Of a DNA stretch of 30,061 bases, positions 472 to 29,470 are shown piece after piece. Position numbers and translations under genes: made by a program. Source of the DNA: a virus; the IMG/VR virus record IMGVR_UViG_3300027631_000092, positions 1 to 30,061 of that record; one strand, 5' to 3'. The notes under the pieces were generated by a model. It worked only from the letters and a program-made list of their open reading frames with translations, had not been told where the DNA came from and made no database searches. Each line of letters begins with the position of its first letter. Position 1 is the first letter of the stretch.

Positions 472-789
472 TTATTTCTTAGCATTATCTATTTCGAGTG
501 CTTTAACAATGTACTTCAGTTGATTAACATCGTCTTGTAGATATATTATCTTTAAATCTTGTTTAGCGTCATCAGGTAGCGCACCCATTTCTCCACGAGG
601 CCATTTAACTCTAAATTCTTCGTTCAACTTTACAGCGTCTTGCATTCTAACTACATCTAATTGTAGTTGGGCTATTTCTGCTGTTAATGTAAACCATACG
701 CCTGCTATTGAGATAATACCAGCAACTGCTCCGACAACCGCTTTTATATCTAAAGAAACTTTTGATTTTTCTGAAATTTCTGACGTCAT
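472..789 (-). CDS. One-TM coiled-coil membrane protein, putative lysis accessory
   Basis: 105 aa. A short polar N-terminus is followed by one clear membrane segment at about residues 16-37 (AVVGAVAGIISIAGVWFTL). A charged, probably coiled-coil region follows (about 38-60), and a second heptad-like stretch lies near the C-terminus (about 80-100). Its ATG overlaps the TAA of the M15 endolysin gene (TAATG at 787-791), so the two are translated together. Position and topology suggest a lysis helper such as a pinholin-like or spanin-like inner membrane component, but no conserved family motif is seen. A recognisable 3-TM-type holin lies at the far end of the operon (29072-29470), so this one may be an antiholin, a second holin or an i-spanin analogue. 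Confidence 0.6.
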   Translation of the reverse strand: MTSEISEKSKVSLDIKAVVGAVAGIISIAGVWFTLTAEIAQLQLDVVRMQDAVKLNEEFRVKWPRGEMGALPDDAKQDLKIIYLQDDVNQLKYIVKALEIDNAKK

Positions 790-1250
790 TATATAACTTT
801 GTATTTAGTTTTACCGTTTTCTCTATAAGCTTTCAGACATCTTTTTCTATTTTCTTCTGAAGAGCAATAACTTACGTGGATCCAGTCTGGATTTTCATCA
901 CTACCAAACTCCCATATCATCTGATCAAAGTCTAAATTTTCTTTTATGTATTTAAACATCTCAGAATTAGTCTTGTGGCCATATACGTCATCTATATCCA
1001 TAGCTCTACCTTCACAATGCTGTGACTTGGAACTTCCACCTATAGCTTTGTTAAGCTCAGGTGATCTAAAAAAAGAATTTATTTTTATAGGTCCACCAAC
1101 CCACTTACGTAAAGGCTCAAATACTTTGTGAGCTAGTATATACATGTTAGTTATCTGGTACTCATCAGGTATATTTTCTATACCTTTTCTCTTAGCCGTA
1201 TAGGAGTTCACTCCTTCGCTTAAGGTTATGTGATCACTTATCTTACTCAT
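789..1250 (-). CDS. Endolysin, M15-family peptidase (D-Ala-type carboxy/endopeptidase)
   Basis: 153 aa, the usual length for a single-domain phage M15 endolysin. The zinc signature is visible: SQHCEGRAMDID gives H78 and D85, and WIHVS gives H125. E114 in the WEFG segment is the likely catalytic acid, and FRSPELN around residue 62 holds the conserved Arg region. The family (Peptidase_M15_3 type) cleaves peptide stems or crosslinks of peptidoglycan. There is no signal peptide, so release would depend on a holin. It lies 9 bases after the giant ejection protein gene and overlaps the downstream membrane protein gene by one base. The M15 fold could alternatively serve as a virion-bound wall-opening enzyme, but the lone domain and cassette position favour lysis. 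Confidence 0.9.
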   Translation of the reverse strand: MSKISDHITLSEGVNSYTAKRKGIENIPDEYQITNMYILAHKVFEPLRKWVGGPIKINSFFRSPELNKAIGGSSKSQHCEGRAMDIDDVYGHKTNSEMFKYIKENLDFDQMIWEFGSDENPDWIHVSYCSSEENRKRCLKAYRENGKTKYKVI

Positions 1251-1259
1251 AGCATTTGT

Positions 1260-4200
1260 TTAAATATCTAATTTTCTAGTTTTTATTTTTCCAGATTTTA
1301 ATGTACCTCTTTTCTTTTTCTTTTTCTTTTCTTCTTTAATACCTAACTCCCAGGCTTGCCAACCACCAAGTAGAGCTATACGTTCCCAAGTCTCTAGATC
1401 TTGCGAAGTAGCTTGAACAACGTTGTTAGCTTTTTTAATAGCTCTATCTAAAGGTATATTTGTAAGAGCGGATAAAACATTACCACCAGCTAAGAAAGCG
1501 GGGTTGTCTAAGCTTAAACCTTTTGTCTTCATTTCATCTTTGTTCCAATCGTATGATTTACCTGCTTGAACAAGTCTTGAATACTTAGCTGAAATTGGAG
1601 GTGATATTTTTAACACTTCTGATGCAATGTTTTGAAGCTTAGGCCTATCCTTGTCTAACTCTTTTACTAATTTAACAACAGCGTTTTTACCTACAGAAAC
1701 TACAGTTCCACCAATACCAGAACCTCTAAGTATAGAATCTAGCATACCGTTAGCAATATTTATATATTTTTTCTCTTTCTCTTTATCTTCTGGCTCTTCG
1801 TCACCAAAACCAACAGCAAATAAAGCTTGTTGTAAAGCGTTAAATATAAGGTTTTGTGCAAATCCGTAATAAATTATCTTAGACATATTTGTCTTAGCAT
1901 CTCCTCGGCCATTTTTAAGATCACTAGCAGCTTTTTTAATTATTCTAGCATATTGAGCCGGCGTATTCGCAAAAGCCAATACAACACGTCCTAATGGACT
2001 AGCTTGCTGCTGAGATATTCTATCTGCTCTAGATGATTGCTGTGATTCTTCAGCTGTTTCTCTAAAATCTTCAAAAGCTTTTTTCTCAGCTTGTTTCTCG
2101 GTATATAAATTATTACCGTTAGCATCTTTTTCTTTTAAGTACGTATTAATTCTATTTCTATAAAAAGCAGATCCACCAGAAGCAATAGCAAAACTATCTG
2201 CTATTTGAGTAGGTGCAAAACCTAATTCTAATAATTTACTTATAGCTCCTTTAGCTCCACCTTTTTTAGCCATATCAGCAATGTCTGCTTCGTTAACGTT
2301 TATACGTAAACCTCCACGTCTTTCTTTTAAGAAGTCGGAATTCATTAACTTCATAAAATCTGCCCAGTATTGTTTTTGATTTGCAAAAGCTTTACCAGCA
2401 GCTAATACATTGTTATCTGTAAAGTTTACGAAGTTTATAGCTGATATAGTTTGTAGCACTGCTGATCTAGTGTTAAGAAACATTATAGTACCAACACTAC
2501 CAGTTAACCAATCAGTAACTCTACCAGTCAAGCTATCACCTGGGAAACTTCTGTTTCTACCAGTCTTCATTCTTTTTAGCATGTTCTCTAATGCTTTTCT
2601 ATAATTTAATCCGTATATAGCTTGTAGCTTGTTTAAGTTTTCTTCACTGAATATTGCGTCTACATTTTCTTGCCAAGCATTTAAGTACTTAGCTCTTTTA
2701 GTAGTATTTAATCCTTCAAGTATATCTGTTGTTATAGTACCAGCTGGCCAACTTTCTTTTGGTTTTATATACCCATCACCCATCTGCATATTAATCAGTT
2801 GATCACCAAATGTTTGCAAATTAGCATCATCTGCTACATAGCTAGTTAGCTTACTTACATCGGCATCACTAATACCAGGAATATTCATCTTCTGTTTATT
2901 CCATATATAAACTCTAACAGCTTGCTCTCTGGTGTAGTCAGTATCTTTTACTTTTTTACCTAAATCTTTTGGTACAACATCTAGTTGTTTTTTTAATAAA
3001 TTATAGTTATTCATTAAATAGATCCTAGCTCGACTAAGCTTATTCATAGCCTCAGCGTATGGGTCTATTAAGTTTTTCTTATACCAAGACATTTGAGCGT
3101 CACCAACTTTACCTTTACCAAGAGTAGGATATAATAAACCAACAAAATCTTCTGCTGACGGTGGTATGAAGAAGTTAAATCTACCTTTACTAGAACCTTT
3201 AGTTATAGCTTCAACAATACCATACCTTTTTTTGCTATCTATACCTGATTTGTTTTCTAGTATATCGTTAAAAGCTTTATCAAGATTACTAACTTTACTG
3301 AATTTTAAATCTGATGTTTTTGTAGGTTTGAATTTTTCTTTCTCGATTAAATTCAAAGGAGGTAAGCCTTTTTTATTAAAAACTGAAGCAGAATCGTAGT
3401 ATCTAGTTATTTTACTTCCTTTCCCTAACAATAATCTACCATCTTTAAGCCTTCTACCATTACTACGTAATCCAGCCCCGCCTTTAGATATAGACATGTC
3501 TATTAATTCACTGTAAATTTTTGGTATTATAGCAACTTTAAAGCTATTCATTAAGTCGTCAAACTTGTAAGCGTTTTTTTCACCAGTTATAATTTTACTT
3601 ATTTCAACTAATGTGTCTGAAGCTGTTTGAGTGTGCTCATACATATAATCTCCGTCATCAAGCTTTCTATTTATTTTTTTCTCTATTTTCTTAATTGTTC
3701 TAGGGTCTGTAAATAAAGTAGGAGTCGCTGCGGTTCTAATCAAAGCGTCAATAGATGAGTTGAAGTTTTGCAATATCATAACCAATTGAGAAGAATTTAT
3801 CTCGTTATCACTGTATAGCTTAGTTAAAGATTCAACAATTTGCCTCATTGATTCTTTTTGGTTGTAAGCGTATTCTTGTCTTTTTTCTAGACTAGGCATG
3901 GTGTTGCTTGATCTTCCATTTATAAAATCTCCATTTACAATGCCTTTAGGGCTCTGCAGAGGAGTAGTCAATAATATTTTATTGCCGTCTACAATCAAGT
4001 AAGATCCTTTATCTCCTTCTTCTATCTTGTTGTCGTAAACGTTTCTTAGTGTTTGTACAAAATCTTTTTTATTTAAAAACAGGAAATTTCTAGTAGAGTA
4101 TCTACCTTGTTCTTCATCAAAAAACTTAACAGTTCTACCATCATTAGTTGTTTCTATGTACCTTCCTTGAGCATATGCTCTTTTAGCTGTTCCTAAAAAA

Positions 4201-7200
4201 ATATTTATAGAATCTTCTATACTTAAACCTTTCATGATTTTTTCTACACCTAATCTAGCCGAGTTAACGTCTTTTATTTTTCCAAAATCAGAGTTTTTAA
4301 CGTTTTTAAGCGAAGGATTGTATCTTTCTACTTTTTTACTAAACATTGTAGCGCTTTTACCGGCAGCAACATCTTGTTTTTGCTCAAGAGTTAAATCACT
4401 ATCTACAGTTCTAACTAATTCATTAGCTATATTCTTATCAACTATACTTAATATACCTTTAATAATTTGACCTTCAGGTGATCTAGGCTCTATTTGTATT
4501 CTCTTATCGTCTACTCTTTTAGGTCTTCCTATAGCGTCTAATACATCTTGATTTGTTAAACCTTTTTTCAAAGTCCAAGGAGATAACCCTGCACCTTTTT
4601 TAATTCTAGGATTTTTATCGTAAAGAAGTTTCAACACACTGTTAGGTACACCAGTAGCAGTACCTATTAATTTTTCTGTTGCGGCTTCTGTTACAGCTCC
4701 TTTTGGAAGTGTTTTTCTAATATAGTCTATATTGTTCTCTATAAACATCGCGCCAGCAGTCGTTTCTCCTTTAGATAAATTCTTTTTTGGATCTGTTATT
4801 TTACCTGCAGGTACGCCAATAACTTTAGAAACTATGTCAGTAACAAAACCACTTACTTTTTTATAGCTTAAGTTTTTAGGATCGATGTCTTTAACCTTTT
4901 CTTTAACGATATCAGCAGCTTTATCATACTGTTCTTTTGATAGTACTTTAGTTGCTTTTATTAACTTAGTTTTCGATCTAGTTTCAGTGTCTGCTAAATC
5001 AATTTGATCTTCTATACTAGTAGATTCGTCAGCTATTTCTTGAACAGAACCAACTTCACCAGCAGCAACGTCTAAACTCTTACCGCTTATACCAGCTTCT
5101 TTCTTATATCTATTTACTACATCACCTATTCTATATCTAATAAGTTCGTTTACAACAAATCCACCTAAATCATCATTAGACTCAGGGTCAAATCTAGTTA
5201 AACTTTTCTCGTATAACTGTGCTTTAACGTCTTCTAAGAATATATCTTTAGGTTTACCATATACATTGTCACCTACAACTCCAAACTTGTTTAATTGACC
5301 GTTTATTAATCCATCTAAGGTGTTTCCTTGAACTAACTTAGCGTACACGTCTCCAATTACTCTTGAGTCGTATTTACGCTTTGTCGTGCCTTCAGGAACC
5401 AATGCTTTTATTTCGTTACCAAGCTCTTTGTTTTTACTAAAAGCAGTTTTAACTTCGGCTTCAACATCAACTACATCTTCGGTAATTCCTTTTATTAAGT
5501 CACCTTCTTTAGCTGCTTTAATGTCTGAGGTTGTTAATGTTCCATCTTTTATTTTTTTACCAATACCAACTACAAAATTAAATATATCTTGTTCTCCTCT
5601 AAAGTCAAAATCATAATCTTTATTAAATTGCTTTTGAACTATAACTCCAAACAAACCTGCTACACCTTTTGCTTTTTGAACGTTGGTTATTTTGTTTTCA
5701 CTTACATATTCTAAAAACCTAGATATAACTTCTGCAGGTAGTATATTGCCTTTGTCATCATCTATTCCGTCTTTTATAAACTTGTCATAAACTTTTTTGT
5801 CTGTAGCTTCTAATGTGGTTAAAAGTTGATTACTTATATCTTTAAAAGCTTTATTGTTAGAATCTTTACCTAATAAGTTCCAAAAAGCCGCGTGACCAAC
5901 TTCATGGGTCTTAGTATATCTTCTTTGATTTTTTACTTGATTTTCTACAACAGCAACTTGAGTATTTGCAACTGGATCAGCATAACCATCGTTACCTTTT
6001 CTAAGACCTTTTATTATTATATTTTTTTCGTCTGCGTCTAAGTTTTCTTGAGTATCAAGATCAGCTATAGCGTCTTCAACTGTTTCAAAAGATTTAAACT
6101 TTTTGAATACAGTAGAGTTTGGTTTACCTTGCTTAGCGTTTTCAGCTCTAACAATGTCTCCAAAATAAAGATCATAAGCTTTTCTATTTACATCTTTCCC
6201 ACTAACTTCTCTACCATCTCTTTCATCTTTTAATATAGATTCAGCAGTGTTTAAATACTCTTGAGATTTTAATTTATCTAAGCCTTTAAATGCTTCCCAC
6301 TCAGTTTCGTTAGCGAGCATTGCGTCTTCAGAAACAGCTACTTGCTTTATTTGTACTAAACTATTAAATTGATTTTTTAGGTCTTTTATAAGTTCAGACC
6401 TAGTGTCTTTGTCTAAGTTTTTATTTTCTTGTATTGATTTAGCTTCGTTTTGAAGTTTAACTTGCTCTTCTACTATTTTAGTTACAAAAGAAGCACCTCT
6501 GTGTGTTAGGTTGTTATTTATAATAACTTCTTGTTCTTTTACTTTGTCGTTTAATCGCTCTGTTTTTGTTGTAATTAAACTTGCTATTTGCTTAGAGGAC
6601 TCACTATCAACACTAGATTGAGATGTTGCAAATCTTTTTTCTAAATCAGTTATTTCAGATCTTAATTTTCTAACTTCTGACAAGCTTTCGTAAGTTGAGA
6701 ACTGAGAGTTGTATGCGCCTTTAAAAAACGGTACAGCCGCAAAAATTAGTCCAAAACCAAAGCCTGAAGCACCAGCATGATCCATTCCTTGTGTAAAAGG
6801 TTTTGCATCTATAAAATTTTGAACACCTACAGTAGCTACTTCTCCAGCCGCTTCTAACAAGGGCTCGTAAATAAGGCCAGAAGATTTAGACTTAAAGTAG
6901 TTTTTAGTAGAATTATTAACTATTTGCTCAGCGCCATTTTCTAGCCAGTTGAGTTTCGCTCTTCTTAATATAGGAACAGTAGTAATCTGTGCAAAAACAC
7001 CTTCAGCTAAACCATAGCCTAAACTCTTTAACCAAACCTCACTATCTGAGTAGTCTGCAGATCCAGTAGTAATTTCATTCTGCATATCCATCATCTTACT
7101 ACCTGCGCTCGAAGCCCCAACAACAATACCAGCAGCACCACCGGATGCAGCCATTGCCAATAGTATAGGTATTTGATTAGAAACTTCTTGAGCTATAAAT

Positions 7201-9083
7201 TTACCAGTGTTACCAGCACTAGAAAAAGCGTCATCAAAAGAAACATCTCTAACATATGATTCTCTTATTTCGTTAGTTGCTTGAACATACTTTGAACCTA
7301 ATTTTTTTAATTCGTCACTTTGGCCTAACGTTAGTATACTTGCTCCTAGATAACCAGTACCAATAACAATGTCAGATAGACCTAGACCTACATTAGCCAA
7401 GTATTTCTCATGTAACTCATAGTTCTTAGAAACAGCATTCATTGAAGTAGCTATATCACTAATATCACCTATAGATTTATTTACTTTAGATGAAGCTTCT
7501 TTAGTAACTGCTATGTTTGAATTAAAAGAAGAATCTATAGCATTAAATAAATTATATAAATTAGCAGATACATTTGCTTTTTTATCTAAATTAAATCTAG
7601 AATTAAAAACTGGATCACTAACAACTTCAGATGCCGCTACAGGATTTACACCGTATTTTTTTACAATATCGTTTAATTCTTTCGCGGTTTGTACACCTCC
7701 AGCACCAGCTTCAGAATATATAGTTAACACTCTTTTTAAATCATCTCTTGATTCTTGTACTTTTTCACTAGCTATTTGAAACTTTTTAGATTTACTATTA
7801 TAGTTTTCAGCTTGCTTTGTTTTTTCTTTAATTAAAGAAGCATATAATAACCCTTGGGCTTTATCCTTGTCTTCTGATTCGTTTATATACTGTTCATTTA
7901 AACTATATATAGCCTCGTTTCTAGCTGATTCATATAAATTGTTTCTAACAGCTAGTTTAGCTTCCGCAACAACATCTTCATTGCTTTTTTTAGGGTTTTT
8001 TCTTTTTATTTTTAAAGTTTCTTTATTTATTTCATCTTCATAAGGTTGTATAGTTTTTAAAACTCTACTAGTTCCGCTTATTGTAGTTCCATCTTCTTGT
8101 TTAATACCTTTTGTATATACGTACTTTTTATAAGGGTTAAATAAATCTTCATTAGTCAAGTATTGTTCAGAGGCTTGATCTTCTTTTATAGCTAACTGCG
8201 GATTAAATTGCTCCTTTTTCCATTTAGTAAAATTAACGTCTAATTTGTTTGACTCTTTGGTCCAACCTGGTATATTAATTTTATCTTTATTAGAATCTAT
8301 AAAATCATTTATTATACTATTATTTCTTTCAGATACTTTTTCATTTTGTAATTCTATAGGTTTAGAATAAATATATTCTCCAGTGCTAGGATCTAATACT
8401 TTCATAACTACAGCTTCTGTTCCTAATTGAGGTAAAAATCTACGCTCAATTGGAATCTCTTTACCAGAAGAGTCTGTTATTTGATCAGCTTCTTCAAATT
8501 CAATACCTGATCCTTTATATACATTTCTAAAAACATTTACAGCTGTTTCTTCTTCTTGACTAAATAATTCTTTATTAAAATTATTAACTTCAAAAATACC
8601 TTTATCTTTATTATATGTTCTAGATTTCCATGCGTCTTTAAGCTCTGGAAGCTTTTCAAAAGGAGATGTCGCTTTTATTACTACTTCATCTAAATCAAAT
8701 TCTTTTGGTCTTGTTCCAAAAGCCTGAGCGTACTCGTCAAAGGTTTCTGGATAACCTTTCTTACCAGCTTTTGTTTTTAAATAAGTGTCTTCATATACTA
8801 CGTTTCCGCTTTCAAACTCTATGAATCTAGGCTTAGGATCTTCTGATACCAAAGAAGTATCTACCTGTTCTAATTCCGTATTCTCGGATGCTTGCTCCGG
8901 TTTTATCGATGTTACAGTTGCATCCTTTACCACAACATCGTTTGTCTTTCCCACTTTTTCTTCAACAACCTCTAATCCATTAGTATCTGAAATATAATCA
9001 TCTAATATGGTAAAGCTGCTATTTTCAAAACCCTCTGTTACAAATTCTTCAGATATATCTTCTCCTTTATATTTATATGGCAT
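1260..9083 (-). CDS. Giant internal virion (DNA ejection) polyvalent protein with HExxH metalloprotease motif
   Basis: 2607 aa, the largest gene here. The N-terminal ~550 residues are charged. Gly/Ala-rich hydrophobic stretches follow near 563-585, 638-660 and 770-790, then coiled coil around 790-900. A zinc-protease motif THEVGH lies at H1060-H1064, with E1118 or E1125 (AEVISRFLE) as candidate third ligand. A helical segment at about 1293-1368 resembles sigma-70 region 2. The C-terminal third (about 1900-2580) has hydrophobic patches near 2198-2220 and 2399-2438, an FANTPAQYARIIKKA motif, and a Lys-rich end. This architecture fits polyvalent ejection proteins, and the place after the gp14- and gp15-like genes is that of T7 gp16, here twice as long. 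No lytic transglycosylase motif was recognised. The start follows ATAAATAAATAAAAG. Confidence 0.75.
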   Translation of the reverse strand: MPYKYKGEDISEEFVTEGFENSSFTILDDYISDTNGLEVVEEKVGKTNDVVVKDATVTSIKPEQASENTELEQVDTSLVSEDPKPRFIEFESGNVVYEDTYLKTKAGKKGYPETFDEYAQAFGTRPKEFDLDEVVIKATSPFEKLPELKDAWKSRTYNKDKGIFEVNNFNKELFSQEEETAVNVFRNVYKGSGIEFEEADQITDSSGKEIPIERRFLPQLGTEAVVMKVLDPSTGEYIYSKPIELQNEKVSERNNSIINDFIDSNKDKINIPGWTKESNKLDVNFTKWKKEQFNPQLAIKEDQASEQYLTNEDLFNPYKKYVYTKGIKQEDGTTISGTSRVLKTIQPYEDEINKETLKIKRKNPKKSNEDVVAEAKLAVRNNLYESARNEAIYSLNEQYINESEDKDKAQGLLYASLIKEKTKQAENYNSKSKKFQIASEKVQESRDDLKRVLTIYSEAGAGGVQTAKELNDIVKKYGVNPVAASEVVSDPVFNSRFNLDKKANVSANLYNLFNAIDSSFNSNIAVTKEASSKVNKSIGDISDIATSMNAVSKNYELHEKYLANVGLGLSDIVIGTGYLGASILTLGQSDELKKLGSKYVQATNEIRESYVRDVSFDDAFSSAGNTGKFIAQEVSNQIPILLAMAASGGAAGIVVGASSAGSKMMDMQNEITTGSADYSDSEVWLKSLGYGLAEGVFAQITTVPILRRAKLNWLENGAEQIVNNSTKNYFKSKSSGLIYEPLLEAAGEVATVGVQNFIDAKPFTQGMDHAGASGFGFGLIFAAVPFFKGAYNSQFSTYESLSEVRKLRSEITDLEKRFATSQSSVDSESSKQIASLITTKTERLNDKVKEQEVIINNNLTHRGASFVTKIVEEQVKLQNEAKSIQENKNLDKDTRSELIKDLKNQFNSLVQIKQVAVSEDAMLANETEWEAFKGLDKLKSQEYLNTAESILKDERDGREVSGKDVNRKAYDLYFGDIVRAENAKQGKPNSTVFKKFKSFETVEDAIADLDTQENLDADEKNIIIKGLRKGNDGYADPVANTQVAVVENQVKNQRRYTKTHEVGHAAFWNLLGKDSNNKAFKDISNQLLTTLEATDKKVYDKFIKDGIDDDKGNILPAEVISRFLEYVSENKITNVQKAKGVAGLFGVIVQKQFNKDYDFDFRGEQDIFNFVVGIGKKIKDGTLTTSDIKAAKEGDLIKGITEDVVDVEAEVKTAFSKNKELGNEIKALVPEGTTKRKYDSRVIGDVYAKLVQGNTLDGLINGQLNKFGVVGDNVYGKPKDIFLEDVKAQLYEKSLTRFDPESNDDLGGFVVNELIRYRIGDVVNRYKKEAGISGKSLDVAAGEVGSVQEIADESTSIEDQIDLADTETRSKTKLIKATKVLSKEQYDKAADIVKEKVKDIDPKNLSYKKVSGFVTDIVSKVIGVPAGKITDPKKNLSKGETTAGAMFIENNIDYIRKTLPKGAVTEAATEKLIGTATGVPNSVLKLLYDKNPRIKKGAGLSPWTLKKGLTNQDVLDAIGRPKRVDDKRIQIEPRSPEGQIIKGILSIVDKNIANELVRTVDSDLTLEQKQDVAAGKSATMFSKKVERYNPSLKNVKNSDFGKIKDVNSARLGVEKIMKGLSIEDSINIFLGTAKRAYAQGRYIETTNDGRTVKFFDEEQGRYSTRNFLFLNKKDFVQTLRNVYDNKIEEGDKGSYLIVDGNKILLTTPLQSPKGIVNGDFINGRSSNTMPSLEKRQEYAYNQKESMRQIVESLTKLYSDNEINSSQLVMILQNFNSSIDALIRTAATPTLFTDPRTIKKIEKKINRKLDDGDYMYEHTQTASDTLVEISKIITGEKNAYKFDDLMNSFKVAIIPKIYSELIDMSISKGGAGLRSNGRRLKDGRLLLGKGSKITRYYDSASVFNKKGLPPLNLIEKEKFKPTKTSDLKFSKVSNLDKAFNDILENKSGIDSKKRYGIVEAITKGSSKGRFNFFIPPSAEDFVGLLYPTLGKGKVGDAQMSWYKKNLIDPYAEAMNKLSRARIYLMNNYNLLKKQLDVVPKDLGKKVKDTDYTREQAVRVYIWNKQKMNIPGISDADVSKLTSYVADDANLQTFGDQLINMQMGDGYIKPKESWPAGTITTDILEGLNTTKRAKYLNAWQENVDAIFSEENLNKLQAIYGLNYRKALENMLKRMKTGRNRSFPGDSLTGRVTDWLTGSVGTIMFLNTRSAVLQTISAINFVNFTDNNVLAAGKAFANQKQYWADFMKLMNSDFLKERRGGLRINVNEADIADMAKKGGAKGAISKLLELGFAPTQIADSFAIASGGSAFYRNRINTYLKEKDANGNNLYTEKQAEKKAFEDFRETAEESQQSSRADRISQQQASPLGRVVLAFANTPAQYARIIKKAASDLKNGRGDAKTNMSKIIYYGFAQNLIFNALQQALFAVGFGDEEPEDKEKEKKYINIANGMLDSILRGSGIGGTVVSVGKNAVVKLVKELDKDRPKLQNIASEVLKISPPISAKYSRLVQAGKSYDWNKDEMKTKGLSLDNPAFLAGGNVLSALTNIPLDRAIKKANNVVQATSQDLETWERIALLGGWQAWELGIKEEKKKKKKRGTLKSGKIKTRKLDI

Positions 9084-9094
9084 CTTTTATTTAT

Positions 9095-10528
9095 TTATGA
9101 TTTTAATAATGGATTTAGTTTCTTTTTTGTACCTGCTCTAACAGCGTCTTCAAACTGCTTTCTCATTAGTTTGTCACCTTTAGAGTTTCCTTTAGCTGCT
9201 TGAGAATATTCTAAAAGTTTCGTGTAGAAAGAAATTCTTTCATTAGGATTATTCATGTTATAAACCTTATCTCCTTTTTCTGAATCTTTTCTATCTCCTG
9301 CTTTTAGTGTGATAATATTTTTATCTCTATCATACTTAGGCTCTATGCCAGTATAAGCTAAGAAATATGATATAGGATCTTTTCTAACTTTGTCGTAAAA
9401 ATCTTTACCTGTTTCTATAGGGCCTTCTTTAGTTTCCGGTGTTGGTGTTTTAACACTAGATAATACTAATCTTTCTGGTATACGCTTTAAAAAGTAATTA
9501 GAATAAGCTTTAGAAAACTCTTCGTTAAACTCTTCAGTGCTAGCATCTGCCACTGCTCTAACTTGACCTTCTTTGATATTATTTCTAGAGTCTTTTTCAG
9601 CTAGAATATTATTCCAAAAAGCTACTTTGCCTGTATTTGACATAGCAGCCATATTTCCTTTTACTTCAGCTTGTATAGATTTTTCTATAGCGTCTTTATT
9701 AACTTTTTTGTAAGTAACCGTGTTACCCGCTTCATCTGGTCCAGATGCTACAGTTCCTAGAACATTATCTTTAAGTGTTTTTTTACCATCTTGATCTATG
9801 TCGTATACAAACATCTTAGACATGTTGTCAAGATTAGATGTTTGATCAGGAACAGTACTAATCATATCTGAACCACCGCTCAGAAAGTTTTGTAATACAG
9901 ACAAAGGATAGTTGTTAGTTTTACCGTCTTCACCTGTAATCTCTACTGAGGGACTGTAAGCTCCATTAATGTTATTTATTTTTATTTTTCTTTGACCAGG
10001 TCTTTGATCTAAAAACACTTGCAAGTCTGTCAACATTCTAGGATTAGAGTATAAATCATATCCACCCATCTTACCTTTTTGCTCTAGTATTGTCTGTAAA
10101 TCGATTGAACTAGCAGAAAAAGATTCTATACTAGTTCTTACTTGATCTGGCATAGCTAATATACTTGCAGCCTCTGCTCTTAGTTTTGCTATTTCTTTAG
10201 GATCAGTTTCAGCTCCACTTTGTATATAACCCATTATGTCACTATACCTGTCTATTACAGAGGTAAATTCTTCACCTATGTTTAAAGCCGGGTTTTGAGC
10301 ACTTAGCTTGGCCAAGCCCTCAGTAACCTGATCTTCTTTTCTTTGGTAATATTCAGCAGCTTTTCTATTCTTTTCAGCTATTTTATTTTGTCTAGCAGCT
10401 TCTGCTGCTTGATCTTTTTTATAAGTATCAGCTACACCAGCGAAAGTTCCTGATATTGTTCTCTGTAAATCTGCGAAAGCTTTACCGCTTTGAGTATCTA
10501 CTACTTGTTGTGGGTTTCTATAACTCAT
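9095..10528 (-). CDS. Probable internal virion protein (gp15 position)
   Basis: 477 aa. The N-terminus (about residues 15-80) is a long charged helix rich in Ala, Lys, Glu and Gln, as in internal core proteins. The middle is mixed alpha/beta, with a GAYSPSVEITGEDGKTNNYP beta region near residue 190. The C-terminus is basic (KKKLNPLLKS). No membrane segment or catalytic motif is evident. It lies between a gp14-like protein and the giant ejection protein with gaps of 14 and 11 bases, which is the T7 gp14-15-16 order. The role is assigned from this position and composition, since no direct homology is recognisable by eye. The start is supported by AATAAATAAATAAAAC immediately before ATG. Confidence 0.6.
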   Translation of the reverse strand: MSYRNPQQVVDTQSGKAFADLQRTISGTFAGVADTYKKDQAAEAARQNKIAEKNRKAAEYYQRKEDQVTEGLAKLSAQNPALNIGEEFTSVIDRYSDIMGYIQSGAETDPKEIAKLRAEAASILAMPDQVRTSIESFSASSIDLQTILEQKGKMGGYDLYSNPRMLTDLQVFLDQRPGQRKIKINNINGAYSPSVEITGEDGKTNNYPLSVLQNFLSGGSDMISTVPDQTSNLDNMSKMFVYDIDQDGKKTLKDNVLGTVASGPDEAGNTVTYKKVNKDAIEKSIQAEVKGNMAAMSNTGKVAFWNNILAEKDSRNNIKEGQVRAVADASTEEFNEEFSKAYSNYFLKRIPERLVLSSVKTPTPETKEGPIETGKDFYDKVRKDPISYFLAYTGIEPKYDRDKNIITLKAGDRKDSEKGDKVYNMNNPNERISFYTKLLEYSQAAKGNSKGDKLMRKQFEDAVRAGTKKKLNPLLKS

Positions 10529-10542
10529 GTTTTATTTATTTA

Positions 10543-11298
10543 TTAAAAAGAAAGTGGAGGTGCGGTAAATCCTTTGCTTGTATTTCCGCCAAATTTGCTG
10601 GTATCAAACGGCTTACTAGATCCTCCAAACGCTCCTGCTGAATACATACTTCCAACCGTGCTAACAACACCTCCAATAGCGCCTGTTATAGCACTTGTTC
10701 TATCTGCATTAGCTTGAGCTTTTCTAGCTTCTGCTCCAGATATTTGAGCAGATAATCTATCCATTTTAGCAACTTGTCTATTTTCTCTTACTCCAAACTC
10801 AAATTGTTTACCAGATACATCTGCTTGCTGTAGTCTCTGAGCTTCAGCCATTTTCATTTGCTGTTGTTGCTGTTCTCCTTGAGCTCTTAGTTTTTCGTTC
10901 TGAGCTTCTTGAGCTTCTATGCTAGCAGATACACCTTTTTTAGATTGTAAAGCTGCTTGAGCTAAAGCAGTTGCTCCACCAGCTGATGCTCCAGTAGCTC
11001 TAATTGTATCTAAAGTATTTGCTAGAGATATATCAGCTTGTTCAGCTTGCATCTCTGCAGCTTGAGTCGCTACGCCTAGATTTTCGTATGGGTTTTGAAC
11101 CATCGAAGATAAGTCTGTAACACCTTCATAAGGATTAATTATTTCTTGTCTACTATTTTCTAGGCTTAGTAATTTTCTTTCTTTATCTTTTCTATCAGCT
11201 TCTGCTGCCTTTGCTCTTCTGCTTGCTGCTGAAGCTCCAAAAATACCTGAAATTATAGATGCCCCGCCTGATATTATTCCGGCTGTTACCATTGACAT
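10543..11298 (-). CDS. Internal virion protein, gp14-like (DNA transfer)
   Basis: 251 aa. The N-terminus is a Gly/Ala/Ser hydrophobic stretch (residues 1-25, GIISGGASIISGIFGASAAS). A long Ala/Gln/Glu-rich helical region follows with a polyglutamine-like run (EQQQQQMKMAEAQ, about 141-153). A second Gly-zipper hydrophobic stretch occurs at about 203-226, with a short Gly/Phe-rich tail. Two amphipathic glycine-rich ends around a helical core are typical of T7 gp14-like proteins that insert in the outer membrane during ejection. It starts 3 bases after the cupin-like gene. The family is inferred from architecture and gene order. Confidence 0.7.
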   Translation of the reverse strand: MSMVTAGIISGGASIISGIFGASAASRRAKAAEADRKDKERKLLSLENSRQEIINPYEGVTDLSSMVQNPYENLGVATQAAEMQAEQADISLANTLDTIRATGASAGGATALAQAALQSKKGVSASIEAQEAQNEKLRAQGEQQQQQMKMAEAQRLQQADVSGKQFEFGVRENRQVAKMDRLSAQISGAEARKAQANADRTSAITGAIGGVVSTVGSMYSAGAFGGSSKPFDTSKFGGNTSKGFTAPPLSF

Positions 11299-11301
11299 AA
11301 G

Positions 11302-11745
11302 CTATTGTTTTAATTGTTTATATTGTATGTATGTTTCGCAGGTTAAAATTCTTTCTAACTCTTCGATGTCTCTTATATTATCTGGATTAGGGTGAATGTT
11401 TACAAAAACAGAATCCTCTAAAGCTATTATAACTCTTTTTGCCCCAGATTTAGCGTTAACGTAAGTAGGAGCTGAGTAAGTTACTACACCGTCTTCGTTA
11501 GCTATTTTTAATTTACCTTTCATTAAAAACCAAGTATGGCTTTTATTATGTATTTTTCCTATTACTATTCCTCCTTCAAGCATAGACATCTCTCTAATAT
11601 AAACTCCTTCAGAAAAAGAATGAGTTAATGGAAAGCTGTCTGAATTACCTTTTACTATTAAAGGATCATTACTAGCTAGCATTTCAGCCTCTAAATTTGT
11701 TACTGTATTTCTAAAATAATCTATACTTAAAGACGTTTGTTTCAT
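11302..11745 (-). CDS. Cupin-fold protein in the tail module
   Basis: 147 aa. Residues 59-80 read as cupin motif 1 (GIVIGKIHNKSHTWFLMKG: H66, H70, then a Gly turn). Residues 91-120 resemble motif 2 (P93, G101, H118, N120). The conserved Glu of motif 1 appears to be replaced, so metal binding is uncertain. Small cupins may bind metal or sugar, or serve only as structural beta-barrels. The ATG overlaps the stop of the nozzle-like gene (TAATG), so it is made with tail proteins, and it precedes the gp14-like gene by 3 bases. Likely roles are a minor tail or adsorption component or an assembly factor. No enzyme activity can be assigned from the sequence. Confidence 0.6.
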   Translation of the reverse strand: MKQTSLSIDYFRNTVTNLEAEMLASNDPLIVKGNSDSFPLTHSFSEGVYIREMSMLEGGIVIGKIHNKSHTWFLMKGKLKIANEDGVVTYSAPTYVNAKSGAKRVIIALEDSVFVNIHPNPDNIRDIEELERILTCETYIQYKQLKQ

Positions 11746-13184
11746 TAATAAGATGATTCTGAATAATCTGAAGAAACTGCAAATAGCTCTTTTAATCCAC
11801 CTGGATTAGTTGTAGCGTCTGTAGAAACTGTAACTGTTGTAAAGTAGCCTTTAATACCAGTCATACTATTACCAAACAAGACTTCTTCTTGCCTAGCGCT
11901 AGTATTGTTAACTAGATTAGCGTGATATTTGTTTTCTTTTCTATTAAAACCTACCCTATATTTAACACCGTTTTCAGTATAGACTCCTTCGTCGTAACTA
12001 TAAACTGTTGGTTTATAAACTGGGGCGTCGTTAACTAGTTCAAATCTATTTGCAGTATCAAAGTTATTAGACCAATTACTGTCTAATAAGTCTGGTCCAG
12101 TTTCATCAGAGCTAAAGCTTGTCACCTGCCAACCATTACTACCTTCGTAGTTTACGGTTTTAAAAACTTTTGACATACTTACTTTAGGGTTAAACACAAA
12201 CTGTATAGAAGTACTGTTGTTTACGTTGTAAAAATTACCTCTATTAACATCTTCAGAATAATGTTTCCATAACTTACCGCTATTAAGACTATAAAAATCA
12301 CTTCTTAAACTTAAGACTTGGTCTGGTTTGTAAGAAAAGAAACTAGTCCAACCTTTTACACCTTCGTCAAAAGTTAATGTTTTGTAACCGTTAGAAGTAT
12401 TACCTGATGCAGGCTGTGTTGATAAGACGTATTGTTTATTATATATGTCCCAACCACCTACTATATTACCTTCTGTACTAAGTGTGTCTATACGCGCGAA
12501 TTCGTCTCTAAAATAATCATACATACCATATGTAGATATTTCAGTTAAACCATCCATAGACAACCTTAAAATAGCGTTTCTATCTTTATCTGAAAAGTAT
12601 TTCCTATAACCATAAGTAGCAAAGCTACCTGGATCTCTACTTATACCAAAGTTACCACCATACGGTTGTATAGTTCCTATAGTAGTATTAACATTGGTAA
12701 TGCTACCTCCGCCTTCAGCAGAGTATATAGCGTCTTTATCTATCAATGCTCTAGATACTTTTGATTCTTGAAATATTATCAAGTTAGTATCTTCTGCATA
12801 TAGTTTTTGTATTGTACCGTTCGCGGGATCAGCTGACTTAGTTATATCTGCACCAACAGGAAATACGTTTGTATCGTTTACACCTGTTCTTGAGTTAAAT
12901 ATACCAGAGTATATTAAAGAATTACCTCTTACTACAGCATTAGGTTCGTCTTCAACTAAATAAGCTTTCACACCATAATCAACATTAGTGTTATTGTAAC
13001 CGCCTCTAATTCTAGCTTCTTCAATAACCCAACTATTAGGCCCAGTTCCTGCGACTCTTTGAAAACCACCTATAGCAGTAGGAATTCCAGTAGATCCATT
13101 CCATATAGGATTGTTTACAGATGCTGGCACGGCTTTTCTAAGTAGAAAGGAGTTAAAATATTTTACTTCTATAGTTGCTGGCAT
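11745..13184 (-). CDS. Tail nozzle/hub-like beta protein (second nozzle component)
   Basis: 479 aa, beta-rich throughout. The stretch around residues 130-235 (ESKVSRALIDKD; TIGTIQPYGG; YRKYFSDKDRNAILRLSMDG) has the look of the beta-propeller part of podovirus nozzle proteins of the T7 gp12 / P22 gp10 kind, in which a late blade reports on the tail-tip gate. The remaining C-terminal part is Asn/Ser/Tyr-rich beta. It follows the 1413-aa nozzle-like protein by 34 bases and overlaps the cupin gene by one base. Together the two may share the job that a single ~800-aa nozzle does elsewhere. It could alternatively be a tail-tip or receptor-binding protein. Confidence 0.6.
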   Translation of the reverse strand: MPATIEVKYFNSFLLRKAVPASVNNPIWNGSTGIPTAIGGFQRVAGTGPNSWVIEEARIRGGYNNTNVDYGVKAYLVEDEPNAVVRGNSLIYSGIFNSRTGVNDTNVFPVGADITKSADPANGTIQKLYAEDTNLIIFQESKVSRALIDKDAIYSAEGGGSITNVNTTIGTIQPYGGNFGISRDPGSFATYGYRKYFSDKDRNAILRLSMDGLTEISTYGMYDYFRDEFARIDTLSTEGNIVGGWDIYNKQYVLSTQPASGNTSNGYKTLTFDEGVKGWTSFFSYKPDQVLSLRSDFYSLNSGKLWKHYSEDVNRGNFYNVNNSTSIQFVFNPKVSMSKVFKTVNYEGSNGWQVTSFSSDETGPDLLDSNWSNNFDTANRFELVNDAPVYKPTVYSYDEGVYTENGVKYRVGFNRKENKYHANLVNNTSARQEEVLFGNSMTGIKGYFTTVTVSTDATTNPGGLKELFAVSSDYSESSY

Positions 13185-13218: not shown

Positions 13219-16200
13219 CTACTGTATTACTTCAAACCCATATTGTAAAAATTCTGAAGAAAGTATTTCAACAGAAGCTTCTGTTTTTGGTTCGTAGGCA
13301 CCAGTGGTACATGCTTGCCAATTATTGACAACGTCACCTAATGTTCCAGCACTGTAAAAGTACAATGGCTCTGAACATTCGTTTTGTTGTTTCATTGATA
13401 TAATATTAACACCGTTAGTTAAATTTGACCAAGAACTAGCTACTATATACCAACCGTTATAACCTAATGGATCATCAGCTGCATCAATTTCTATTATTGT
13501 AGCTCGTTTTGTAGTTAAGTTTTCAAAAGTAGCGCTAAGACTGTAAGTCCAAGTAAAATCATAAACTCTTGAAGGTATAACACCTAGCTCAGCTGTTATA
13601 ACTATTTCGTCAAAAGCATTACCCGCGTCTAGACACTTAAGATTTATAGTATATGTTCCTACTGGTATAGGAGATCCGGCAACATTTCTAAGTTCACATG
13701 TTGATAATTCATTTGTTTGAGATGTAACTGCGCTAAAAGCAAAGCTAAAGTCATTGTTGTTAGAGTCAACTGCGCTAACTGACCACGTAATATCTCTACC
13801 TTGATTTCCTCCAAGAGTGTTAGCTCCATTAACGGCGGTAAAAGTATCAATATAACTAGGAAAAGTACTACCTGTAGCCGTGTAGTTAACGGCAGGAGTT
13901 GGAGTTGTACCATTTCCACCAGGACCACTCATTATAGGTGGTAAATTAGTTAATCTAGCTACTTCGTTGTAGCGGGTAGTAATACCATCTACAACAGAAG
14001 TAAAAGAAAAATTAAATTCATTTGAACCAATAATAGAACTGTAGTACACATTATCTACAAAGTTCTGCTTTACTTTAATGTTATACCCATTACCAGGGCC
14101 GTTTGGCTCATAAAGAACAAACCAATTACTTTTATCTAAAGATCCAGGCACGTTATCGAACACAGAAGTTATATCAAAAGTGTCATTAGCGCCGAGCGTT
14201 ATTGCGTTACCAAGATTATTAACTATAAAAAAGTCAGATCTTGTAGCTTGAGTACCTAATATCGGGTCGTCAAGTCCTAGACCTTCGTCAAAAGCAGCAT
14301 CATTCCAGCCAACAAAACTCGAACCAGCATTAGAAGAATAAAGAATAACGTCGTTTAAATCTGTTATTAACCCAGATGAAGATGTTTCCCAAAAAATATC
14401 TAACCTAGAGGTAACAGGCTTTGTTTCAAACACAGCCAAAGTGTTTATATCATTAAAGTCTTGTTGAGAAAAAATAAGTTCATCACCATTACTGAAGCTT
14501 ATAATTTTATTAAAAACTACTGTAGTGAAGCCATTAATTGTTACACTTGTAGCATATACTCCATTAACAACAGCTCCATCTATAGAAATTAATGAGCTAC
14601 CTATTTCAATAGTTCCTACTACGTTTTCTAAATCGACTGTTATAACATTTGATCCTACCGCTTTTGCATCTCCAGAACCAGCAACCTCTGTAAAACTATT
14701 ATTTACTCCAAATTGTAAGCCTGAATTTTGAGAAGTACTTATCTCTGCTATAAAAGGATCTGAGTCAGACTTGAAGAAACCGTGAAAAGCGTTTAATGGA
14801 TTAGTTATAGGTATTACTTCATCAAACTTACCTTTAAAGTCTTGAACATCAAATAATCCAAATAAATCTTCTACAGAAGAAGTGGTGAATGATCTTCTTC
14901 CTGGATAAAACTGTTCGTTAGAAGTTGAAGTGTTTTGAACTCTTCCGTAAAGCTCAACAGAACTTCTAAATGTTTTATCTTGTGGTCCTACTTCTGATAA
15001 ATCTCTAGGTATTTTATTTATATTGTCATTTAACAATGTTATAAAAGATGTATTCTCGCTAAGAACTGGTGTTATGTCAAATGTGTCATAGTTATAAGGT
15101 AAACCTTTCATAGCTCCAGCAGAGTAAACATTGTAATATTCTTGCTCAACCTGTTTTACTACTATTTTATAAGAATACCAACCTAGTGGGTTATAGTCAT
15201 CACTACTAGCATCGCCATTATATATACCTGGCTCATTAGTAACAGGGTTTGGAGATTGTGGGCTAATAGGATCATTAACTAAAACCTTTAAGGAATTTCC
15301 CATCCAATCATAAGTGTTTGTCCCTTCGTCTATATACGGAGAGAAGGCGGTTGAAACACTAAAATTATAAGTGTTTTCACTATTACTTGCTAGTATAACG
15401 CTAGATTGTCTACCAAACTTATCTGAAAGAACAAAGCCTACTTGATAATTTCTGTTTGTTTTTAAGTTGCTAGACGGGTATTCTACTTTACTTGTTGAAT
15501 CTGAAACATTACCTGATAAATTAAAATCTATAAGTATACTGCTTGAAAGACCAACGTCTTTGTTAAGTGTCATAGTTGTAGACCCATCAGTAGTTACTAC
15601 CCTTGTACCTATAGGTATTGAATCATTTGGATATAAAGAACTCAATAAACTACCTACAACAATACTACCTGAAGCATTATATATAGTTATTGATGCACCT
15701 GCCGCGAAAGAACCTCCACTAGTTTGAGCACTACCTTTATTCAAATTGAAATCTGATTTTTCACTAGAGGTAACATTATAGTTTAATAAAGCTGGTGGAG
15801 TGTGTTTGTTTTGATAGTTACCGTAAACAATTCTATTACTTATTATTTCTTGAGAAAAAGCTTTTACAGGTACTTTATCGTATACTCTTGTTATTTCGTC
15901 TGATGGTAAAGTTTTGTATGGTATTTGAGACTCATACTCATAAGTAAAAACATCCAACAAGCTATCAGCTTCACTTGTTCTAAAGTTATTTGTATTAGAT
16001 ATAGTTTCTACCACTTGAACAGCTAGTCCATCTGATTCTTTATATAGTATATCTATTTCTTCTATATGTAAACTATTACTTAAATTAGCTACACTTGAGG
16101 GTAGTGGTATTTTTAAATCTATTTTATTAACCTTATTTTCCATAAAGTCAATTATGGTAGAAGAATAAGCTTGTTGCTCATCACCTTCCGTAGGCGTGTT

Positions 16201-17460
16201 ATTTAAAAAATAACCATCTTGCTTAGGTATAAAACAAGGCTGAGTAAATGGAGCCATTATAGAATATTCTCCATCGTTAAACTTAAATCTGTAACTAAAT
16301 CTTACAAATTTATCTTCTAAGAATTTAGGATCACCTTTGTAGTTAGGTATGTAGTAGGGATTAGCGTCAAAGACTAACTCTTCATCATCAGTAACTGATA
16401 TAGAACTACTAACGTTTAAAACAGTAGAACTAGAACCAGCGATTACAGTAACACCTAAATCTGTAACTTCACCAAGAGCGTTAATTTTACTTACGCTTTG
16501 ACCAACTACAGGTTCACCACCTACTGGTATGTTTGTTTGATCTATGTTTATACTAGTACCGCTTTGATCACCATTAACTAAAGCCGTGCCACCATCCGGA
16601 TAAGCTATGCTAAAAACATCTTTCATTGTAGACTCGTAGTCTCCAGGCGATAAAGCACTTGACTCATAAAGCTCTATAGCTTCATAGGGATTATATTTAG
16701 CTACAGATATATTATCTTCTGAGGTATAATAATAAAAAACACTTGATATTGATATAACGGCTTGTGTACCAGGCCCTGGACCCAATATGTTTACTAAATC
16801 ACCTACAGCATATCCATTACCTGGATTAACAACTGTAACACTATTTATAGTACCGCCTATTGTAGTTACTGACACTGTTAAACCTTTACCAACGCCTCCA
16901 GGAACTTGATTCTGCGTATTGTATACACTATCTATATATCCATTACCAATAGCGCTTAAGCCAACATTCATAACAGATCCAGCACTTTCTGTAGCGCTTA
17001 TTACATTTATTTTTCTAGGTTGATTTCTATTATCTGTCCAAAACAATAAATTCTCAAGTAGATTAACGCCGAATATAGGATTTAATTTTGAGAAATTTAA
17101 AAAAGCTCCTTTAACTAATATAGAACTAGTGTCATTAGTCGCATTGTAAGAAACAACGTAATGGTTCGAGCCTGCGCCAGTAGGGATATAATCATTAGTA
17201 TCATTGTCTGTTAAGAAAACATATATCATACTACTTGCTTCATCTGATAAATATCCTATAGAAGACAAGTTTGATATACTCAACCCAAAGTCGCTGACTT
17301 GTTTGTTACCTAAAACGTTTTCTAAAGCTCCAACATCAGAACCTTCTGATTTACTTACTTGAGCATTTAAAGCGTTTCTATATTCACCTGATGGTAGAAG
17401 TCTACTATCAAGGTCTTTATTCATTTTAGACTTTATAAAAGCATTTTTAACCTCAGCCAT
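13219..17460 (-). CDS. Large tail tubular/nozzle-like structural protein with beta-repeats and Ig-like domain
   Basis: 1413 aa. Residues 8-55 (KSKMNKDLDSRLLPSGEYRNA, then SDVGALENVLGN) form the typical start of podovirus nozzle or stabilisation-type proteins, in which a propeller contacts the adaptor. Residues about 169-240 contain a GNGYxxGD beta domain. Three copies of a beta-repeat lie at about 300-367, 581-650 and 926-1001 (pattern: VG..v/l.., then TVxxxxxSxxxxxDxELxF). Residues about 1191-1300 look like an Ig/cadherin-like domain. The C-terminal ~100 residues are aromatic- and Asn-rich. There is no coiled coil or membrane segment. It starts 6 bases after the adaptor candidate. Added beta modules could decorate the tail or bind host glycans; no separate tail fibre gene is seen in the window. 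Confidence 0.7.
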   Translation of the reverse strand: MAEVKNAFIKSKMNKDLDSRLLPSGEYRNALNAQVSKSEGSDVGALENVLGNKQVSDFGLSISNLSSIGYLSDEASSMIYVFLTDNDTNDYIPTGAGSNHYVVSYNATNDTSSILVKGAFLNFSKLNPIFGVNLLENLLFWTDNRNQPRKINVISATESAGSVMNVGLSAIGNGYIDSVYNTQNQVPGGVGKGLTVSVTTIGGTINSVTVVNPGNGYAVGDLVNILGPGPGTQAVISISSVFYYYTSEDNISVAKYNPYEAIELYESSALSPGDYESTMKDVFSIAYPDGGTALVNGDQSGTSINIDQTNIPVGGEPVVGQSVSKINALGEVTDLGVTVIAGSSSTVLNVSSSISVTDDEELVFDANPYYIPNYKGDPKFLEDKFVRFSYRFKFNDGEYSIMAPFTQPCFIPKQDGYFLNNTPTEGDEQQAYSSTIIDFMENKVNKIDLKIPLPSSVANLSNSLHIEEIDILYKESDGLAVQVVETISNTNNFRTSEADSLLDVFTYEYESQIPYKTLPSDEITRVYDKVPVKAFSQEIISNRIVYGNYQNKHTPPALLNYNVTSSEKSDFNLNKGSAQTSGGSFAAGASITIYNASGSIVVGSLLSSLYPNDSIPIGTRVVTTDGSTTMTLNKDVGLSSSILIDFNLSGNVSDSTSKVEYPSSNLKTNRNYQVGFVLSDKFGRQSSVILASNSENTYNFSVSTAFSPYIDEGTNTYDWMGNSLKVLVNDPISPQSPNPVTNEPGIYNGDASSDDYNPLGWYSYKIVVKQVEQEYYNVYSAGAMKGLPYNYDTFDITPVLSENTSFITLLNDNINKIPRDLSEVGPQDKTFRSSVELYGRVQNTSTSNEQFYPGRRSFTTSSVEDLFGLFDVQDFKGKFDEVIPITNPLNAFHGFFKSDSDPFIAEISTSQNSGLQFGVNNSFTEVAGSGDAKAVGSNVITVDLENVVGTIEIGSSLISIDGAVVNGVYATSVTINGFTTVVFNKIISFSNGDELIFSQQDFNDINTLAVFETKPVTSRLDIFWETSSSGLITDLNDVILYSSNAGSSFVGWNDAAFDEGLGLDDPILGTQATRSDFFIVNNLGNAITLGANDTFDITSVFDNVPGSLDKSNWFVLYEPNGPGNGYNIKVKQNFVDNVYYSSIIGSNEFNFSFTSVVDGITTRYNEVARLTNLPPIMSGPGGNGTTPTPAVNYTATGSTFPSYIDTFTAVNGANTLGGNQGRDITWSVSAVDSNNNDFSFAFSAVTSQTNELSTCELRNVAGSPIPVGTYTINLKCLDAGNAFDEIVITAELGVIPSRVYDFTWTYSLSATFENLTTKRATIIEIDAADDPLGYNGWYIVASSWSNLTNGVNIISMKQQNECSEPLYFYSAGTLGDVVNNWQACTTGAYEPKTEASVEILSSEFLQYGFEVIQ

Positions 17461-27730: not shown

Positions 27731-28005
27731 TACTTAGATCTACCTTCAGCAAAACCTCTAAAAGATTTTTCTTGTTTAACATCTTTTGGTTTTTCTTCCA
27801 AAAGCTTTTCTTCCTCTTCTATTCTACTAAGTATTTCAAAAGCATCGAAAATAGCTAGCTTCTTTGTAGCTGCAGCGTTTTTTAATCTATCAGCAGATAT
27901 ATCATCATCTGAGTCAACTATTTTTTCTTTAGCTACTTGAATTAATTCCTCAACTGCTTTTTGCCCAGCCAGGATTATATTCTTTTTCGTCTCCTTTATA
28001 TTCAT
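27730..28005 (-). CDS. Probable terminase small subunit
   Basis: 91 aa, mostly helical and charged. Residues 8-60 form helices (AGQKAVEELIQVAKEKIV; SADRLKNAAATKKLAIFDAF), and the C-terminus is Lys/Glu-rich with a basic end. There is no clear helix-turn-helix. It lies directly upstream of, and overlaps by one base (TAATG), the large terminase gene, the standard position of the DNA-recognition subunit. Its start lies 56 bases inside the preceding GroES-like gene in another frame, and no later Met exists, so the overlap is probably real. The call rests mainly on position; it could instead be a small structural protein. Confidence 0.6.
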   Translation of the reverse strand: MNIKETKKNIILAGQKAVEELIQVAKEKIVDSDDDISADRLKNAAATKKLAIFDAFEILSRIEEEEKLLEEKPKDVKQEKSFRGFAEGRSK

Positions 28006-29071: not shown

Positions 29072-29470
29072 CTATTTATTATTACCTGATTGTTTAGACT
29101 TTTCCCAAGTCCTTCCTACAAAGTAAGCACCGTATACCGTTATTAATAATGACTGAAATATAGGTATGTATTGCGTAGCAACTTTGAACCCACCAATATT
29201 ACCATCAAAAAAAGATAACACAGTGAAAACTATAGTTAAGTATATTAAAACTAATGGGCGTATGTTTTTAGATAAAAAACTATCACTAGCCATATCAGCA
29301 TTCCAACGATCAGTTACTTGAGCTTGAGCGTCTTTGTCAGCTTGTTCTAATAACTCTTGTATTTTATGCTTAGCAGCTAATCTTTCTTCATCCGTAGTGG
29401 TTAGCTTGTCTATTACGCCACCAACGTCTTTAATAAGACCACCTGTTAAAAGGCTTAGGATTTTTTTCAT
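29072..29470 (-). CDS. Holin, 3-TM / gene-transfer-agent type
   Basis: 132 aa. The N-terminal 60 residues are amphipathic and charged (DKLTTTDEERLAAKHKIQEL). They are followed by DRWNADMASDSFLSKNIRPL, the hallmark lead-in of the GTA holin 3TM family. Two strong membrane segments follow at about 72-88 (PLVLIYLTIVFTVLSFF) and 100-118 (YIPIFQSLLITVYGAYFVG), then a basic C-terminus. The weak first hydrophobic segment may be residues 3-20. Such holins form inner-membrane lesions that let endolysin out. It directly follows the upstream gene (TAAATG). It is unusual that it sits with packaging genes, about 28 kb upstream of the endolysin. Confidence 0.85.
   Translation of the reverse strand: MKKILSLLTGGLIKDVGGVIDKLTTTDEERLAAKHKIQELLEQADKDAQAQVTDRWNADMASDSFLSKNIRPLVLIYLTIVFTVLSFFDGNIGGFKVATQYIPIFQSLLITVYGAYFVGRTWEKSKQSGNNK

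What the first reader, a model, noticed from the sequence alone, without database searches (positions are those of the whole stretch)
1260..9083. 2607-aa ejection protein with an embedded HExxH metalloprotease
The THEVGH motif at residues 1060-1064, with E1118 or E1125 downstream, sits in the middle of a giant internal virion protein flanked by pore-like Gly-rich segments. Such an enzyme would be delivered into the host with the DNA and could cut host or virion proteins, or process the protein itself. T7 gp16 instead carries a transglycosylase.
Basis: partly seen in the sequence, partly recalled or inferred. Interest (0 to 1): 0.6.

Follow-up and report, generated by a model that had tools for sequence, protein, structure and literature searches.

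The report
Zinc protease inside phage ejection protein
A giant protein that this marine phage probably packs in its particle and injects with its DNA carries a built-in zinc-protease domain, conserved in most of its relatives, and the same short sequence recurs at domain borders downstream of the protease, which may be where the protein is cut into its working parts.

Summary
The 2607-aa ORF is real, but on the minus strand. H1060-E1061-VG-H1064 is in place, and alignment settles the third ligand: E1118 is invariant in 58 of 58 aligned relatives, whereas E1125 varies. Among 122 non-redundant homologues, 109 carry HExxH, 8 EExxH, 2 QExxH and 3 none; shuffled sequences give HExxH in 0.25% of proteins. 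AlphaFold predicts a confident zincin-like core, and the best solved matches are the zinc-protease domain of anthrax lethal factor. Isolated flavobacterial podoviruses have an annotated structural protein in the same gene slot (Elemovirus, with protease; phi38:1, without). The idea is not new: zincin-like metallopeptidases are the commonest domain of phage 'polyvalent' proteins (Iyer 2017), and N4 virion RNA polymerase has one. Pfam does not recognise this clade. New here: (1) the protease module has been exchanged independently of the C-terminal domain (21% versus 61% mean identity); (2) a motif, consensus [ILV]KFSK[SA], recurs at borders downstream of the protease (held-out set: 53 seen, about 10 expected), a candidate processing site. 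Self-processing is my leading mechanism but unproven: EExxH variants keep the motif, and N4 vRNAP is packaged uncut. No cleavage, zinc or virion location has been shown.

The parts
1260..9083 (-). 2607-aa polyvalent internal virion (ejection-type) protein
   Evidence: ORF; homologues; synteny with annotated structural proteins
5682..6101 (-). Zincin-like metallopeptidase core, residues about 995-1134 (modelled segment 935-1229 = window 5397-6281)
   Evidence: AlphaFold block mean pLDDT 87-94 over most of the core (one block of 76); fold searches
5892..5906 (-). HEVGH motif, residues 1060-1064
   Evidence: E1061 and H1064 in 58/58 and H1060 in 54/58 aligned relatives (rows were chosen for HExxH or EELFH)
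5730..5732 (-). E1118, inferred third zinc ligand
   Evidence: 58/58 in A4, not selected for; lies on a later helix of the model
6342..7556 (-). Residues 510-914, region shared with phi38:1 gp101 and Elemovirus gp18; holds the three hydrophobic Gly/Ala-rich stretches
   Evidence: blastp E=1e-15 and 2e-7 in a small database, hydropathy scan
4332..4346 (-). Candidate processing motif MFSKK, residues 1580-1584
3291..3305 (-). Candidate processing motif KFSKV, residues 1927-1931, at the border of the C-terminal domain
1314..3296 (-). Conserved all-helical C-terminal domain, residues 1930-2590
   Evidence: 61% mean column identity over 58 relatives; model pLDDT 79.6; matches predicted phage polyvalent and internal virion proteins
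9095..10528 (-). 477-aa companion gene in the second ejection-protein slot
   Evidence: position; same slot as phi38:1 gp100, annotated structural
10543..11298 (-). 251-aa gene, T7 gp14-like by position and a weak profile match
   Evidence: Pfam T7_gp14 E=0.0095, below its cut-off; same slot as phi38:1 gp99

Best explanation
It is a polyvalent internal virion protein of a flavobacterial-type podovirus with an embedded zincin-like metallopeptidase (H1060, H1064 and E1118 bind zinc; E1061 is the general base). Most likely the protease cuts its own polypeptide, or sister copies, at the [ILV]KFSK[SA] sites that recur downstream of it. This would release the variable linker modules and the conserved C-terminal domain during head maturation, or after the chain is threaded into the cell. 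Shown: the ORF, motif conservation, predicted fold, synteny, and non-random motif placement. Inferred: zinc binding, catalysis, virion location, ejection, and cutting at the motif.
For: One HExxH in 109 of 122 homologues, in the same place between the membrane-like region and the C-terminal domain. E1118 is invariant without selection. The model has three strands, a helix with HExxH and a later helix with E1118, the layout described for polyvalent MPTases (PMC5512222). The top five VIA-align rows are all the lethal factor protease domain, Z 6.3-7.1. Foldseek's best viral match is the Elemovirus giant structural protein, prob 1.00, and the A4 profile finds the domain in Elemovirus gp18, E=3e-12. 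Gene order matches phages whose giant protein is annotated structural. The strict KFSK motif is enriched only downstream of the protease: first set linker 66 vs 10.2 and border 20 vs 1.1; held-out linker 39 vs 9.2 and border 14 vs 0.6; N-terminal part and other phage ORFs at background. It has 145 hits against a median of 21 for its 120 letter-order permutations, in 51 different flank contexts.
Against: Z about 7 is near what models without clear relatives often reach (note); Foldseek alone found no PDB match at E<=0.001. The profile match to N4 C1 vanishes when the HExxH columns are masked. EExxH variants, which lack a normal first ligand, keep the KFSK motif (7 of 8). 41 of 109 HExxH proteins lack the strict motif. 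The protease modules are only 21% identical, yet the motif is the same. N4 vRNAP is packaged uncut although it has such a domain (PMC5512222). phi38:1 and Panino do without the protease.
Confidence: 0.45

Rival explanations
1. The protease is an injected effector that cuts a host protein (a defence, transcription or envelope protein), and the KFSK motif is an unrelated linker feature.
For: Protease modules differ sharply between phages with nearly the same C-terminal domain (window vs L002: 20% and 86%; window vs L007: 59% and 44%; correlation 0.19), as expected of a diversifying, exchanged effector. PMC5512222 offers host targets as one option; PMC7824862 argues likewise for jumbo-phage peptidases.
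Against: Effectors are often optional, but here HExxH is in 109 of 122. No target or immunity partner is known. It does not explain the motif.
Confidence: 0.3
2. The domain cleaves other virion proteins during head assembly, acting as the maturation protease of this phage group.
For: No other prohead protease was recognised in the window (not searched exhaustively); the protein is predicted to lie inside the head.
Against: The KFSK motif is absent from the other annotated window proteins and not enriched in 260 other ORFs (14 vs 12.2 expected). Relatives such as phi38:1 lack the domain but keep the same head genes.
Confidence: 0.12
3. The domain is a structural relic: a zincin fold kept for packaging or folding, with catalysis unimportant.
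For: H1060 is replaced by E or Q in 10 of 122 homologues and the domain is not recognised in 3. N4 vRNAP is uncut, and its region including the MPTase domain is needed for encapsidation (PMC5512222).
Against: E1061 and E1118 are invariant at about 20% overall identity, a pattern typical of selection for catalysis.
Confidence: 0.13

Closest known systems
Zincin-like metallopeptidase (MPTase) domains of polyvalent proteins (Iyer et al. 2017, PMC5512222)
   Same: HExxH helix plus Glu helix, three-stranded sheet, embedded in the middle of a giant multidomain phage protein; HEXXXH variants are also described there and one relative here has HEMIGH (L008)
   Different: No Pfam, NCBIfam or PHROGs family recognises the window domain; EExxH and QExxH variants and the recurring KFSK motif were not found in the passages read
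Phage N4 virion RNA polymerase gp50, C1 domain (PMC12633501)
   Same: HExxH domain within an ejected ~3,500-aa protein that also has a membrane-inserting N-terminal part
   Different: No RNA polymerase was recognised in the window protein; H-to-E spacing is 82 rather than 58 (N4 Glu assigned from the conserved NEFMAW motif); similarity rests on the motif
Elemovirus gp18 (Flavobacterium phage elemoE_6-9C)
   Same: Same gene slot, shared membrane-like region (E=2e-7) and protease domain (E=3e-12), annotated structural protein
   Different: 3694 aa and a different C-terminal part (no A3 match)
Cellulophaga phage phi38:1 gp101 (Pervagoviridae)
   Same: Same gene slot, shared membrane-like region (E=1e-15), annotated structural protein by similarity
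   Different: 1691 aa, no protease domain found
T7 gp16 (from general knowledge)
   Same: Large protein in the last position of a three-gene ejection cassette
   Different: T7 gp16 carries a transglycosylase; no homology was tested, and T7 gp15-gp16 appears only as a weak row for the C-terminal domain (Z 4.1, 72 residues)

Membership tests
Zincin-like metallopeptidase fold (gluzincin type) | HExxH motif on a helix | tested here: met
Zincin-like metallopeptidase fold (gluzincin type) | Glu third ligand on a following helix | tested here: met
   E1118 58/58, in helix 182-194 of the model; ligand distances could not be measured, no coordinates were available
Zincin-like metallopeptidase fold (gluzincin type) | Overall fold similar to solved members | tested here: inconclusive
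   Top five rows are the lethal factor protease domain, Z 6.3-7.1, but rmsd 4.8-6.8 and Z under 8
Zincin-like metallopeptidase fold (gluzincin type) | Zinc bound and peptide bonds cleaved | not testable with these tools
   needs protein
Polyvalent-protein MPTase clades (Iyer 2017) | Recognised by published sequence profiles | tested here: inconclusive
   Window domain: no Pfam hit; members give weak M78, SprT-like and PHROG metallo-protease hits; the paper's own clade alignments are not held
Polyvalent-protein MPTase clades (Iyer 2017) | Embedded in a large multidomain phage protein encoded among virion genes | tested here: met
N4-type vRNAP C1 domain | Profile similarity beyond the motif | tested here: not met
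   hhalign prob 73%, E=3e-5, falls to 0.6% with the five motif columns masked
T7-like ejection proteins (gp14/gp15/gp16) | Three adjacent genes, found in the virion and ejected | tested here: inconclusive
   Three adjacent genes, gp14 profile E=0.0095, relatives annotated structural; ejection not testable

The most novel reading that the evidence does not exclude
The embedded zincin is a polyprotein-type protease: [ILV]KFSK[SA] is its recognition sequence, and these phages load a chain of exchangeable modules in one polypeptide that is cut apart at KFSK borders. That would be the first defined cleavage code for polyvalent-protein metallopeptidases.
Probability: 0.3. Interest if true: 0.8.

Novelty: new variant of a known kind. 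Interest (0 to 1): 0.5.

Why it matters
What the very common metallopeptidases of phage polyvalent proteins cut has been an open guess since 2017.

Tried and rejected
(1) Split genes as evidence for processing: L008, L051 and L081 encode the protein in pieces, but the junctions are frameshifts or a local duplication, probably assembly artefacts. (2) Homology to N4 C1 beyond the motif: lost on masking. (3) Relatives in 84,980 cellular genomes by pattern scan: none; in isolated phages by direct tblastn of the whole protein: none, so isolates were reached through the capsid and terminase. (4) Known enzyme families in the linker between protease and C-terminal domain of 52 homologues: Pfam found nothing convincing, although a HAD-like DFDDT/TARP signature is visible in many. 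(5) Solved sequences by profile: nothing significant. (6) Fold of the C-terminal domain against PDB: no row above Z 4.2. (7) E1125 as third ligand: rejected, not conserved. (8) A P1 DdrB comparison was started but the gene was not reached in the two stretches fetched. (9) Papers on KFSK-like sites in polyvalent proteins: none found in the open library. (10) A first hhalign control script ran in global mode by mistake and was replaced.

Full report
What is there. The ORF at window 1260..9083 is on the minus strand and encodes 2607 aa. It is the last large gene of a late cluster read on the same strand: terminase, portal, capsid, ring and tail proteins, then 147-, 251-, 477- and 2607-aa genes. 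The record is a 30-kb virus fragment. Capsid and terminase place it beside flavobacterial podoviruses: Elemovirus, Cellulophaga phi38:1 (Pervagoviridae) and Maribacter phage Panino. These share the gene order, and the giant gene in this slot is annotated structural in Elemovirus and in phi38:1. Residues 510-914, which hold three hydrophobic Gly/Ala-rich stretches, match phi38:1 gp101 and Elemovirus gp18.

The motif. HEVGH lies at 1060-1064. I collected homologues by the whole protein and by the conserved C-terminal domain. In the first set 68 of 79 long homologues have exactly one HExxH, against 0.25% of shuffled sequences. A held-out set gave 51 of 55. Over 122 non-redundant proteins the counts are HExxH 109, EExxH 8, QExxH 2, none 3. 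One split relative has HEMIGH, an HExxxH form like one known among polyvalent MPTases. In the 58-row alignment E1061, H1064 and E1118 are invariant. The first two were part of the row selection, E1118 was not.

The fold. AlphaFold on residues 935-1229 gave mean pLDDT 78, with 87-94 in most blocks of the core. The order of elements, three strands, a helix with HExxH, then a helix with the Glu, is the one described for polyvalent MPTases. Foldseek found no significant PDB match, but a second-look alignment put the lethal factor zinc-protease domain in the first five rows (Z 6.3-7.1). In viral predicted structures the best match is the Elemovirus giant structural protein (prob 1.00). The fold assignment is therefore likely but not proven by structure comparison alone.

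Modularity. The protease region averages 21% pairwise identity and the C-terminal domain 61%, with a correlation of only 0.19. The window's protease is 59% identical to that of L007 while their C-terminal domains are 44% identical; with L002 the figures are 20% and 86%. Modules have been exchanged. The C-terminal domain is all-helical and resembles predicted phage polyvalent and internal virion proteins; some of the same database proteins also match the protease model (A0A516LJH9, A0A8S5V458, A0A218ML07, A0A8S5QNW5).

A new motif. Aligning the otherwise poorly conserved linker (14% mean identity) showed one nearly invariant Ser in a [KML]-[FL]-S-[KR] context. A strict pattern, [KRMLVQ][FL]S[KR][SAKTVN], was then counted by region. 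First set, observed against shuffled mean: N-terminal 5/6.4, protease 2/1.4, linker 66/10.2, border of the C-terminal domain 20/1.1, C-terminal domain 9/7.7. Held-out set with the pattern fixed: 6/5.8, 0/1.5, 39/9.2, 14/0.6, 1/7.1. The consensus is [ILV]KFSK[SA]; outside about six positions the flanks differ. It occurs in at least 51 distinct flank contexts and beats all other letter-order permutations (145 against a median of 21). Other ORFs of these phages show no enrichment. The window has MFSKK at 1580-1584 and KFSKV at 1927-1931, the latter at the C-terminal domain border. The homologues are related, so shuffles overstate significance; the flank-context count partly answers this.

Mechanism. 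A protease followed by a repeated short motif at module borders looks like a polyprotein, so I favour self-processing (about 0.45). Against it: EExxH variants keep the motif, the protease is very diverged while the motif is not, and N4 vRNAP with a similar domain is packaged uncut (PMC5512222). The two QExxH proteins, which are near relatives, lack the motif, but that is too few to weigh. A host-directed effector is the main rival (0.3).

Novelty. Metallopeptidases in phage polyvalent proteins, and the idea that they process the chain, were published in 2017 (PMC5512222); the N4 C1 domain has been solved (PMC12633501). This family is a Pfam-invisible clade with unusual ligand variants. The motif appears undescribed in the open papers I could search, which miss most subscription journals.

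Noticed in passing
window 789-1250 (-): Peptidase M15_3 domain (E=8e-16), a likely endolysin, directly downstream of the giant gene.
   Followed up: partly
window 29072-29470 (-): GTA_holin_3TM match (E=2e-6), a likely holin, upstream of the packaging genes and far from the endolysin.
   Followed up: no
window 27950-28555 (-): 201-aa gene in the slot where Elemovirus and Cellulophaga Calle_1 carry an annotated GroES-like co-chaperonin; Pfam did not match it.
   Followed up: partly
linker of many homologues, e.g. L017, L018, L041, L051, L052, L081: A HAD-like phosphatase signature (VFDFDDTLARSNSKV ... LTARP) lies between protease and C-terminal domain in many relatives but not in the window; DFDD/FDDT 4-mers occur in about 26 of 65 linkers.
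   Followed up: partly
MW202828.1 (L093) 741-12320 (-): The 3859-aa giant protein of this spring phage has two HEFGH sites, about 885 residues apart.
   Followed up: no
window 11745-13184 and 13219-17460 (-): Two adjacent genes match different parts of one PHROG family (phrog_14478), as if a single tail gene had been split or fused.
   Followed up: no
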